This document shows positions 11,834 to 14,597 of a DNA stretch of 41,914 bases, piece after piece. The DNA lies in the NCBI GenBank assembly GCA_013298185.1, contig JAAFJQ010000006.1:1-41914 (forward strand), written 5' to 3'. The DNA is from Deinococcales bacterium. Its GTDB lineage: Bacteria > Deinococcota > Deinococci > Deinococcales > JAAFIG01. The notes under the pieces were generated by a model, which saw only the letters and a list, made by a program, of their open reading frames with translations, was not told the origin of the DNA and searched no databases. A program made the translations under genes and the position numbers. How positions within the stretch are numbered: the first letter of the stretch is position 1; each line of letters begins with the position of its first letter.

Positions 11834-11839
11834 TATAAA
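11834..11839 (+). promoter_or_regulatory. -10 box of the metallopeptidase cassette, leaderless type
   Basis: TATAAA ends 6 nt before the ATG at 11846 and supports that start over the upstream ORF opening at 11783. Confidence 0.65.
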
Positions 11840-11845
11840 AACCAG

Positions 11846-12412
11846 ATGCCGCTCAGGTTCTCCCAAACCTTCTTTTCCATTTTACCCGAAGAACAAACCA
11901 GCAAGATACTTGCGGTTCTCGAGGAAGCAGGGCTTGAAATGTTCTTGCAAAAATATCCCTTTCATTCGCTCGAGTTCCGCTCGGATGTGCGGCTAAAAAC
12001 CAGTGTAGTTCAAGGTTTTTATAGTTACCAAACCCAAGATGCCAAAGTCAATGTAGATCGTGACACAAATGATTTTGCTGCTACATATAAACAGCAAGAT
12101 TTTTGGAGTATCAGTTCCTTAGCCAAAACACCCATTGATGCCGTTCGCGGTACACTCATCCACGAAACTGGTCATCACATCCACAACCTCTTAAAGTCAG
12201 AGCAGCCAGATATTTTTCGTCATACCATGTTGATGCCACGCAGCAGTGCCTTGAGCCAATATGGAATGCAGAACAACCCTGAGTATTTTGCCGAAGCCTT
12301 GGCAGCCTATGTTTTTCAAAGAACCGAGCTGTTGGTTCAGGATAAACTTGGATATGATATGATTGTGCTAGCGTTGAATGCACTTAATCTTCAACTAAAG
12401 GAAATTGTATGA
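11846..12412 (+). CDS. Predicted zincin-type metallopeptidase (HETGHHIHN)
   Basis: A 188-aa protein with an HExxH motif, HETGH at residues 106-110, and a likely third ligand in PEYFAEALAAY about 40 residues on (Glu near 150). This is the gluzincin-like layout of small toxin-like and phage-associated peptidases. There is no signal peptide or membrane segment. I use ATG 11846 because of the TATAAA box 6 nt upstream; the track starts at 11783. Its stop overlaps the next gene by 4 bp, so it heads a short operon of AT-richer genes (11846-13081). The target is unknown. A peptidase coupled to a very small protein would fit a toxin/immunity or protease/substrate pair, but nothing proves that. Confidence 0.72.
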   Translation: MPLRFSQTFFSILPEEQTSKILAVLEEAGLEMFLQKYPFHSLEFRSDVRLKTSVVQGFYSYQTQDAKVNVDRDTNDFAATYKQQDFWSISSLAKTPIDAVRGTLIHETGHHIHNLLKSEQPDIFRHTMLMPRSSALSQYGMQNNPEYFAEALAAYVFQRTELLVQDKLGYDMIVLALNALNLQLKEIV

Positions 12413-12609
12413 CTCAAATCATTGAAATAGAAAAAATAGACAGTGCTACACTGTCCAATGATTTGTATATGGCTTTTTTTGAAGAACGCTTAAGTAAAAC
12501 TATGTATGACACCATTATTTCAGAACTGCAAACTCGAGCAATGCATCCAGATGTACTCATGAGTCTGGTCGTGCTTGGTTTACCTGAATGGCAAAAAAAG
12601 TATCTTTAG
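12409..12609 (+). CDS. Small acidic protein (66 aa), coupled to the metallopeptidase
   Basis: MTQIIEIEKIDSATLSNDLY begins at an ATGA overlap with the peptidase stop. The product is acidic and helical, with YMAFFEERLSKTMYDTIISE in the middle. No family recognised. Possible roles are inhibitor, adaptor or immunity factor for the peptidase (inference from coupling). The region is AT-richer than the surrounding genes. Confidence 0.65.
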   Translation: MTQIIEIEKIDSATLSNDLYMAFFEERLSKTMYDTIISELQTRAMHPDVLMSLVVLGLPEWQKKYL

Positions 12610-12634
12610 ACTTGTAAACTTAAGAGGACGTATT

Positions 12635-12661
12635 ATGGGTGCTGAAATCTGCGGTATCTAA
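12635..12661 (+). CDS. Candidate 8-codon mini-ORF (MGAEICGI) leading into the membrane-protein gene
   Basis: ATG at 12635 has an AGAGGA Shine-Dalgarno about 7 nt upstream (12623-12628). The frame ends in TAA after eight codons, and the next gene's ATG follows with no gap (TAAATG). That next gene has no Shine-Dalgarno of its own, so the mini-ORF probably delivers ribosomes to it by reinitiation. It is too short for the ORF track. Confidence 0.45.
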   Translation: MGAEICGI

Positions 12662-13081
12662 ATGTTTATGGAATTTCTTCTTATCACACTTGGGTCTTTT
12701 TTCTGGTTTTGGCTTGCTGAAAATGGTAGGGGATTCCTGTACAACAGGTTTTCGAGTTACCAAATTGCCAACGATGTGCTTCGACATCAATTGTTTTTTA
12801 TATCAGAATTCTCAGTCCCTATTAATACTTTGACACATATGCGCCTTTCATACGAGTCTCCTTTTGAAATTGAGAAAGATTTGCTGGTTTATCAATTTCA
12901 ATTACCTTTACAGGACAGCTTGGTTATCATTCACCAGAAAAATGGCAAAACAATAAAAAACATCGCCTACCCTGAGAATTTGTTCCAATTAAGAGGCGAA
13001 ATTTTTGCCAATGTTTCTTTGCTTAATAAGCAAATCGAAATAAACCACAACCTAGAAATCAAAAACCAGTCTGTTTCCTGA
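12662..13081 (+). CDS. Small membrane-anchored uncharacterised protein (139 aa)
   Basis: An N-terminal hydrophobic helix (MFMEFLLITLGSFFWFWLAE) would anchor the protein. About 110 residues of mixed polar sequence follow, with no family I recognise. The ATG comes directly after the TAA of an 8-codon Shine-Dalgarno-led mini-ORF. About 600 bp around this gene contain no CTCGAG, and the base composition is AT-rich, unlike most of the window. It is the last gene of the peptidase cassette and lies 25 bp before the S41-type gene. Confidence 0.65.
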   Translation: MFMEFLLITLGSFFWFWLAENGRGFLYNRFSSYQIANDVLRHQLFFISEFSVPINTLTHMRLSYESPFEIEKDLLVYQFQLPLQDSLVIIHQKNGKTIKNIAYPENLFQLRGEIFANVSLLNKQIEINHNLEIKNQSVS

Positions 13082-13106: not shown

Positions 13107-14597
13107 ATGAAAAGGATGCTTTTTTCCCTGCTGGCGGCATTGGCTTGCTCAAGTGCGGCTGGCGCTCAAAAATTCATTGGTAGCCCCGCTCAGGATTTGT
13201 TTGACCAAGCCTCGTTTTTCCTCGAGACCCAGTATTTTGGTCCTAGCCAAGTGAACATGCTTTCGCTCATTGCCAAGTACCAACTCGAGGTGGATAAGGC
13301 TTGTGAAACCACCCAACTCAAATGCACGTATGAAACCGTCGAACCGCTTGTGGCGGCGATGATGGATGAACTCCAAGACCTCCATGCGTTTTACATGAGT
13401 CCTGCTATCTTGGCGGCTGAAAACCAACAAAGCACGGGTACGGTCACATCGCCTGCGCCGCGCATGGGTTTTAGTCATGGGGCATTTGCTGAGTACCAAA
13501 AACAAACCGTGACAGTCGGTGGTTTCTCGCCAGCCTTGCTTGATTTGGTGGCTAAAGGCGAACTAAAATTCCTGAGCTTTGATCGTTTGATTCTGAATGT
13601 CGTCTCTGGTAGCCCCGCCGAAAAAGCTGGTTTTCGCTATGGGGACAGATGGATTGGTTACAACAACACCCGTTTCTCGAGTTTTAGCAATGTCACAGAT
13701 TACGCTACATTTTTAGCTGCTCTGACCCCAAAAATACAGGCTCGAGAGAAAGTGGTTTTTAACTTCTTACGCGGTGCAAATAAAACGCCCGTCAATATCG
13801 AAGCCTCGGGCGACATCATCAACACTGCGCCGTTTCCAACCATGTTTATTGATGAGAACAACATTGCCAACATTCAAATCACCGATTTTTTGGTCAATGG
13901 CGTTGCCCAACAATTCCATGCCCTTGTGAAAACCGCGATGGATAAAAATGTCAAAGCCATCATGCTCAACTTACGCGGTAGCCGAGGCGGCTATGCTTCT
14001 GAAAGCCTGATGTCACTTGGCGCATTGATGGACAACCCAGACACAATTCGTTTTGTACCTCGCTACAACGCCGTCCAAAACACCAATGAGGAAGTCTGGC
14101 TGAAAAATACTGCTACTTACGTGGTGCGAAAACTTGATGGCACGGAACTGTATAGCAGCAGCATCAAAAACCCAGTTTTGTACAAAGGCGCATTGGGCTT
14201 GTTGGTGGATGGCGGTTGTGCCAGCGCCTGCGAATACTTGGTCAGCCGCGTTCAACGCGCCAAACGCGCTCCAATTGTTGGTTTACCAACCACGGGTATT
14301 GGCAACACCAACACCTTTCGCTTTGCTCTTGCCAATGGCGGCGCAGCCTCGATGCCAACCGTGCGGACATTCTGGTCGGATGGCACACCCATGCCCAGCA
14401 ATATCACCCCAGATTTCCAAACTCCAGATGCCGAGTACACCTTGTTCAGTACAGGGCGTGATGTTGGTGTGGAAAAAGTCCTCGAGACCCTTGGTATCAA
14501 GCTCTCGAGCCAACCGAACAGCATGATGCAAACACCACAACTACCCACATGGGGAGCTTACCAAGCAAGAATCTTAAGGCAGCCCACAAGCAACTAA
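13107..14597 (+). CDS. Exported S41-family (C-terminal-processing-like) peptidase with PDZ domain, atypical active site
   Basis: A 496-aa protein with a signal peptide (MKRMLFSLLAALACSSAAGA), a PDZ-like domain (~159-235, including VVSGSPAEKAGFRYGD), and an S41 core (ANIQITDF, AIMLNLRGSRGGYASES). The candidate nucleophile is Ser373 in DGGCASACEYL. In classical Ctp proteases a Lys follows about 25 residues later in TxGKG. Here the matching segment is LPTTGIGNTNT with no Lys, so it may use another catalytic arrangement or be inactive. Such proteins process or degrade periplasmic substrates. A 'KxDxACxxTxxKC' stretch (residues ~64-73) may hold a disulfide. No Shine-Dalgarno is seen. Confidence 0.85.
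   Translation: MKRMLFSLLAALACSSAAGAQKFIGSPAQDLFDQASFFLETQYFGPSQVNMLSLIAKYQLEVDKACETTQLKCTYETVEPLVAAMMDELQDLHAFYMSPAILAAENQQSTGTVTSPAPRMGFSHGAFAEYQKQTVTVGGFSPALLDLVAKGELKFLSFDRLILNVVSGSPAEKAGFRYGDRWIGYNNTRFSSFSNVTDYATFLAALTPKIQAREKVVFNFLRGANKTPVNIEASGDIINTAPFPTMFIDENNIANIQITDFLVNGVAQQFHALVKTAMDKNVKAIMLNLRGSRGGYASESLMSLGALMDNPDTIRFVPRYNAVQNTNEEVWLKNTATYVVRKLDGTELYSSSIKNPVLYKGALGLLVDGGCASACEYLVSRVQRAKRAPIVGLPTTGIGNTNTFRFALANGGAASMPTVRTFWSDGTPMPSNITPDFQTPDAEYTLFSTGRDVGVEKVLETLGIKLSSQPNSMMQTPQLPTWGAYQARILRQPTSN

What the first reader, a model, noticed from the sequence alone, without database searches (positions are those of the whole stretch)
11846..13081. Small AT-rich cassette: leaderless metallopeptidase, coupled 66-aa protein, mini-ORF and membrane protein
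Four consecutive reading frames are tightly joined: a peptidase with HETGHHIHN, an overlapping 66-aa acidic gene, an 8-codon Shine-Dalgarno-led mini-ORF, then a one-helix membrane protein. Composition and absence of CTCGAG over about 600 bp set the 3' half apart, suggesting recent acquisition. A toxin/immunity, protease/inhibitor or signalling function is possible. None of the small proteins is recognised.
Basis: partly seen in the sequence, partly recalled or inferred. Interest (0 to 1): 0.72.

Follow-up and report, generated by a model that had tools for sequence, protein, structure and literature searches.

The report
Orphaned phage-type protease toxin with antidote
Two overlapping genes in an uncultured relative of Deinococcus encode a stand-alone copy of a protein-cutting toxin domain that phages normally carry on a capsid protein, together with the small protein that accompanies it there and is probably its antidote, so a phage weapon seems to have become a resident two-gene module of the bacterial chromosome.

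Summary
The first two genes of the finding are a real, conserved unit: an HExxH peptidase (11846-12412) overlapping by ATGA a 66-aa acidic gene (12409-12609). The peptidase is a lethal-factor/PPEP-like zincin (AlphaFold pLDDT 95.8; best Foldseek hits are lethal factor). Two more intact pairs and one with a broken peptidase lie elsewhere in the same genome, four in three related Deinococcales genomes. The same two proteins occur in Meiothermus prophages and IMG/VR phages, where the peptidase is the C-terminal domain of a MuF (SPP1 gp7-like) capsid protein and the small gene sits immediately downstream, in the position of the immunity gene of MuF polymorphic toxins. The window copy lacks MuF, lies among housekeeping genes and has its own start. 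Seven such free pairs form one clade in both the peptidase tree and the partner tree; Deinococcus aetherius plasmids hold separate ones. I read it as a phage toxin-immunity pair turned resident toxin-antidote module; toxicity and neutralisation are inferred. The membrane protein and 8-codon ORF are not part of the conserved module, and the CTCGAG gap is not unusual; the low GC is. MuF-metallopeptidase toxins are known; I found no description of this immunity family or of the free-standing form.

The parts
11834..11839 (+). TATAAA, possible -10 element of a leaderless start
   Evidence: sequence; A/T-rich -10-like elements 6-12 nt before the start are also seen in several other free copies; no -35, so weak
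11846..12412 (+). 188-aa free-standing lethal-factor-like zincin (toxin part)
   Evidence: Pfam ATLF E=0.0047, below the curated cut-off; family profile finds lethal factor E=4.7e-5; AF2 pLDDT 95.8; Foldseek lethal factor E=6e-4, prob 1.00; homologous to MuF C-terminal domains
12161..12175 (+). HExxH zinc-binding motif (H106, E107, H110)
   Evidence: invariant in 21 aligned relatives
12281..12295 (+). E146-x-F-x-E150, third zinc ligand region
   Evidence: E146 and E150 invariant in 21 relatives; aligned with the EFFAE stretch of lethal factor
12409..12412 (+). ATGA stop/start overlap of peptidase and partner
   Evidence: sequence; ATGA or near-abutting junction also at most other pairs
12409..12609 (+). 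66-aa acidic all-helical partner, predicted immunity/antidote protein
   Evidence: profile built on 11 partners finds the gene immediately downstream of the peptidase in independent loci; hhalign of free versus MuF-linked partners prob 94%, E=1e-7; AF2 pLDDT 83.7; no PDB fold match
12635..12661 (+). 8-codon ORF, not part of the conserved module; possibly the interrupted start of the next gene
   Evidence: same frame as 12662-13081, one TAA between
12662..13081 (+). 139-aa protein with one N-terminal hydrophobic segment; orphan gene, no demonstrated link to the pair
   Evidence: no Pfam, NCBIfam or convincing PHROG hit; only itself in the 10 nearest genomes searched and one marginal hit (26%, E=5e-4) in 111 genomes of the phylum

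Best explanation
The pair is a free-standing descendant of a phage MuF polymorphic toxin. The 188-aa protein is its toxic tip, a cytoplasmic lethal-factor-like zinc endopeptidase, and the 66-aa protein translated in overlap with it is the cognate inhibitor, which binds the peptidase and keeps it silent. In phages the tip rides on the MuF capsid protein (known: MuF toxins) and the resident partner protects the lysogen. In this lineage the pair has lost MuF and the phage and is kept on the chromosome as a toxin-antidote module: if the partner is lost or titrated (for example by an incoming phage toxin or by loss of the locus), the peptidase cleaves a host protein and stops growth. Shown here: zincin fold and active-site conservation, homology to MuF C-termini, a conserved partner, a free form with its own start, and a free-standing clade. 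Inferred: that the peptidase is active and toxic, that the partner inhibits it, and the trigger.
For: Fold and active site. MuF fusions with the partner next door. Partner homology across both forms. Free copies keep HExxH and E in 7 of 7, with no MuF. Free clade in both trees (100/98 and 100/99), separate Deinococcus free pairs. Tree distances of peptidase and partner correlate (Mantel r=0.45, p=0.0006 for all 17; r=0.57, p=0.04 within the free clade). Partner outlives the toxin: one own-genome copy has lost the HExxH part but keeps an intact partner, and partner-only genes exist in three genomes. Company of TA and restriction genes at some copies: HigB-like/HTH beside C447, MazF upstream of a partner-only gene, IIG-like methylase and McrBC around G001 C9. 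No prophage in the window: 23 of the annotated neighbours are ordinary chromosomal genes.
Against: No toxicity, binding or cleavage data. The partner has no DNA-binding domain, so the autoregulation usual for type II antitoxins is not indicated. Association with TA or restriction genes is seen at a minority of copies. Free copies might be weakened or repurposed enzymes. The direction (MuF form first) rests on parsimony in an unrooted tree.
Confidence: 0.55

Rival explanations
1. Immunity reservoir: what selection keeps is the 66-aa partner, which protects the cell against the related toxin injected by MuF phages or released by lysogens; the free peptidase is a passenger, attenuated or merely maintained by linkage.
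For: Partner-only genes occur beside CRISPR arrays in two Meiothermus genomes and behind MazF in G012; own-genome copy C409 has a broken peptidase and intact partner. Prophages with the fused toxin are common in Meiothermus, and the window's own genome holds a MuF protein with a different zincin domain. CDI orphan modules are a precedent, in which immunity is expressed and the toxin usually is not (PMC3150448).
Against: All seven free peptidases are intact with every catalytic residue, divergent from one another (about 31-47% identical to the window copy), and have own start codons, which a passenger would not need. The free partners form their own clade, away from those of known phages.
Confidence: 0.25
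2. Regulatory protease: the pair is a signalling unit in which the small protein is an activator, adaptor or substrate of the peptidase, comparable in logic to ImmA/ImmR or IrrE/DdrO, without toxicity.
For: Intracellular zincins paired with a small partner are a known regulatory arrangement (own knowledge of ImmA/IrrE); D. aetherius pDAETH-1 has an HTH gene just upstream of the pair; several divergent copies per genome could regulate different targets.
Against: The partner has no HTH and no regulator fold; no HTH gene accompanies the window copy or most others; the sister forms are packaged phage effectors with the same partner.
Confidence: 0.13
3. One reading: peptidase, 66-aa protein, mini-ORF and membrane protein act together, the membrane protein as receptor or second immunity protein.
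For: Close spacing and shared low GC; MuF toxins can have two immunity proteins (PMC11699363).
Against: No relative of the membrane protein beside any other copy; no convincing relative in 111 genomes of the phylum; the mini-ORF is in frame with it and may be a stop within one gene.
Confidence: 0.05

Closest known systems
MuF polymorphic toxins of temperate phages (Jamet et al. 2017, PMC5576092; Bxa and Apk2, PMC11699363)
   Same: Homologous C-terminal toxin domain and homologous downstream small gene; Jamet et al. report a metallopeptidase domain in 20% of MuF toxins and a small downstream ORF in 89.4%
   Different: The window protein has no MuF domain, no phage neighbourhood and its own start; the paper places MuF toxins exclusively in temperate phages and their prophages
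Tox-ALF metallopeptidase (anthrax lethal factor-like) of Zhang et al. 2012, PMC3482391
   Same: Same peptidase superfamily, HExxH, toxin role in polymorphic systems
   Different: Listed with PVC and T2SS export and with Imm-SuFu immunity, not with MuF and not with a 60-90 aa helical partner; Deinococci are not listed for it
Anthrax lethal factor catalytic domain and Pro-Pro endopeptidases (PF07737/M34-type zincins)
   Same: Fold and metal-binding layout
   Different: About 15% identity; no protective-antigen-binding domain, no secretion signal seen; profile score below the Pfam cut-off
[quoted passage not shown]
   Same: Detached toxin tip with its immunity gene
   Different: CDI orphans lie behind a full-length system and most lack translation initiation; these lie at scattered chromosomal sites with start codons
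Type II toxin-antitoxin modules
   Same: Two small overlapping genes, several divergent copies per genome, patchy distribution
   Different: No DNA-binding antitoxin; toxin first in order; toxin class (lethal-factor-type protease) that I do not know in any type II system and did not find in searches

Membership tests
ATLF (PF07737) zincins | HExxH plus downstream Glu ligand | tested here: met
   H106, E107, H110, E146, E150 invariant in 21 relatives; lethal factor aligned by profile E=4.7e-5
ATLF (PF07737) zincins | Pfam gathering score (27.4 bits) | tested here: not met
   17.1 bits; related MuF-linked domains 13-23 bits
ATLF (PF07737) zincins | Lethal-factor/PPEP catalytic fold | tested here: met
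   model pLDDT 95.8; top Foldseek hits lethal factor, prob 1.00, TM 0.47-0.60 by query length, and PPEPs
MuF polymorphic toxins | N-terminal MuF domain | tested here: not met
   188 aa, Pfam finds no MuF in the window protein; MuF present in homologues L021, L052, L061, L028, L027, L034, L062 above cut-off
MuF polymorphic toxins | Located in a temperate phage or prophage | tested here: not met
   neighbours are amidase, S41 peptidase, aldo/keto reductase, ABC transporters, ddl, TruD and the like
MuF polymorphic toxins | Small gene immediately downstream (immunity) | tested here: met
   66-aa partner, homologous to those behind MuF toxins
MuF polymorphic toxins | Toxicity neutralised by the downstream gene product | not testable with these tools
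   needs expression assay
Type II toxin-antitoxin system | Two small overlapping co-directional genes conserved together | tested here: met
Type II toxin-antitoxin system | Antitoxin with DNA-binding domain and autoregulation | tested here: not met
   no HTH or other domain by Pfam, no fold match; regulation itself not testable
Type II toxin-antitoxin system | Growth arrest by toxin, rescue by antitoxin | not testable with these tools
   needs expression assay
ImmA/IrrE-type regulatory protease pair | Partner is an HTH repressor cleaved by the protease | tested here: not met
   partner lacks an HTH; no M78/IrrE hit for the peptidase
CDI-type orphan toxin-immunity module | Detached tip without own translation start, behind a full-length system | tested here: not met
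   start codon present, no full-length system nearby

The most novel reading that the evidence does not exclude
A chromosomal toxin-antitoxin-like system whose toxin is a lethal-factor-type metalloprotease, captured from phage capsid-borne (MuF) toxins and kept in several diverging copies per genome with a previously undescribed 60-90 aa helical inhibitor family.
Probability: 0.35. Interest if true: 0.75.

Novelty: new variant of a known kind. Interest (0 to 1): 0.57.

Why it matters
It links three things usually studied apart: phage capsid-borne polymorphic toxins, lethal-factor-type proteases and resident toxin-antidote pairs. If right, it gives a small testable system for a protease as an intracellular bacterial toxin, names the immunity family for a class of MuF metallopeptidase toxins, and shows a phage effector becoming a chromosomal module in Deinococcota. 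Partner-only genes beside CRISPR arrays suggest that cells keep the antidote as protection against phage-delivered toxin.

Tried and rejected
CTCGAG depletion as a sign of foreign DNA: gap not unusual. Four-gene cassette: membrane protein not conserved with the pair. Empty-site test: in the closest genome the homologue of the upstream 287-aa and 72-aa genes is followed directly by an ABC permease and no pair, but synteny is lost on that side altogether, so it shows absence, not a clean insertion; the downstream S41 gene belongs to a large paralogous family and has no clear orthologue. Direct hits of the window peptidase in phage records: none; a single-sequence scan of GTDB contigs found nothing, the profile scan found only Deinococcota. 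Meiothermus phage MMP7 and Thermus phage Riverbug have related MuF proteins but different C-terminal extensions without HExxH. Partner fold search gave no usable match; weak sequence hits such as SAC3, L19e and EF-hand helices were taken as chance. PADLOC has no model for either protein. Complex prediction of peptidase and partner was not possible with the tools. Literature searches for metalloprotease toxins in TA systems and for orphan MuF immunity found no such report, within a library that lacks most subscription journals.

Full report
What is there. The peptidase starts at 11846 without a Shine-Dalgarno, 6 nt after TATAAA. Its stop overlaps the start of the 66-aa gene (ATGA, 12409-12412). 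The 8-codon ORF (12635-12661) lies in the same frame as the 139-aa membrane protein (12662-13081), one TAA apart. The stretch 12410-13081 has the lowest GC of the window (35.7% against 50.3%). The CTCGAG argument fails: the gap is the sixth longest of the window, and the 66-aa gene itself contains the site.

The peptidase. Pfam gives only a sub-threshold ATLF hit. A profile of the family finds anthrax lethal factor (E=4.7e-5), an ATLF-like protein and Pro-Pro endopeptidases among solved structures. The AlphaFold model is excellent (mean pLDDT 95.8, pTM 0.92), and its best Foldseek matches are lethal factor, then PPEPs; among viral proteins the matches include phage proteins labelled lethal factor and minor capsid proteins. 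H106, E107, H110, E146, E150 and D166 are invariant over 21 relatives. So it is a lethal-factor/PPEP-type zincin by fold and active site, though it fails the Pfam membership score. Activity is not shown.

A conserved pair. The window's genome (457 contigs, 94.6% complete) holds two further intact copies and two decayed pieces. Relatives, uncultured Deinococcales (names), hold four more in three genomes. Every intact copy is followed, overlapping or abutting, by a 65-75 aa gene of one family. A profile built from 11 partners then picked out the gene directly behind the peptidase in loci not used to build it: L048, L051, L049, L052, L053, L054, L055, L059, L061, L062, L023, L028, L030 and L063, L094, and by eye L027 and L034. 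Chance cannot explain this placement.

Origin in phage MuF toxins. In Meiothermus and in IMG/VR contigs the peptidase is the C-terminal part of a protein with an N-terminal Phage_Mu_F domain, above the curated cut-off in L021, L052, L061, L028, L027, L034 and L062, and truncated or weaker in others. L021 lies between a Mu-type portal protein and a Mu-like protease gene. The partner is in the position where MuF toxins carry their immunity gene: Jamet et al. (PMC5576092) report metallopeptidase domains in 20% of MuF toxins and a small downstream ORF in 89.4%, and Bxa and Apk2 are cases where adjacent genes were shown to be immunity proteins (PMC11699363). Partners of free and MuF-linked peptidases are homologous (hhalign probability 94%, E=1e-7).

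The free-standing form. The window copy has no MuF, and its neighbours on both sides are ordinary chromosomal genes. Seven free pairs form one clade with full support in both trees (peptidase 100/98, partner 100/99), while two free pairs on Deinococcus aetherius megaplasmids fall elsewhere; the tree needs at least two changes between free and fused states. The fused form on both sides of supported branches suggests that it came first, but the tree is unrooted. Peptidase and partner distances correlate, as expected of partners inherited together; this is support, not proof, of specific pairing. All seven free peptidases keep the catalytic residues, while one further own-genome copy has lost the HExxH part and kept an intact partner. 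Partner genes without peptidase occur next to CRISPR arrays in two Meiothermus genomes and behind a MazF gene in G012. The partner can therefore exist without the peptidase, but no intact peptidase was seen without a partner where the downstream sequence could be judged. That asymmetry is what a toxin and its antidote would leave.

How it most likely works. The peptidase is a cytoplasmic toxin held inactive by the partner, whose synthesis is coupled to it by the overlapping genes. Loss or titration of the partner frees the protease, which cleaves a host protein and stops growth. Shown: family, fold, conserved pairing, phage relatives, free clade. Inferred: activity, toxicity, inhibition and trigger. 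The main rival is that the antidote is the selected part, as protection against phage-delivered relatives. A regulatory protease pair is possible but less likely, since the partner has no regulator domain and the sister forms are phage effectors.

What is not part of it. The 139-aa membrane protein is an orphan gene and follows no other copy. Whether the mini-ORF is a leader or the broken start of that gene cannot be told without relatives.

Novelty. MuF toxins with metallopeptidase domains are known as a class, and lethal-factor-like toxins with Imm-SuFu immunity in other export systems are known (PMC3482391). I found no description of this helical immunity family, nor of a free-standing resident version; the text library lacks most subscription journals, so this is not proof of absence. 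I call it a new variant of a known kind.

Noticed in passing
whole window: CTCGAG occurs 295 times in 41.9 kb where about 10 are expected from base composition, and 5-11 per kb in the related genomes G001, G003 and G012: an iterated palindrome on the scale of HIP1.
   Followed up: partly
window 13107-14597: S41/PDZ peptidase belongs to a greatly expanded family: 19 matches in the window's genome and 29 in G001, often in tandem.
   Followed up: no
L120 1483-1719 (G072 C2) and L127 4826-5050 (G025 C1): Near-identical partner-only (predicted immunity) gene without peptidase directly beside a CRISPR array (about 29-nt repeat, 61-nt period) in two Meiothermus-group genomes.
   Followed up: partly
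L126 1477-2510 (G012 C186): Partner-only gene downstream of a MazF/PemK toxin gene and a small upstream gene likely to be its antitoxin.
   Followed up: partly
L012 5728-6502 (G000 C447): HigB-like (Gp49) and HTH genes next to the paralogous pair.
   Followed up: partly
L015 499-9935 (G001 C9): The pair sits between a type IIG/DrmMI-like methylase gene and McrBC genes, reading in the same direction.
   Followed up: partly
L131 1-1047 (G000 C143): The window's own genome holds a MuF protein at a contig end whose C-terminus carries a different zincin motif (HEIGHAVH...NNAEFVAE) and a different small downstream gene.
   Followed up: no
L096 3321-3757 (IMG/VR): A small membrane protein gene lies between the MuF-peptidase gene and the partner-like gene, a possible second accessory.
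   Followed up: no
L059 1971-3083 (G065 C111): Two partner genes behind one MuF-linked peptidase, the second truncated: a possible poly-immunity locus.
   Followed up: no
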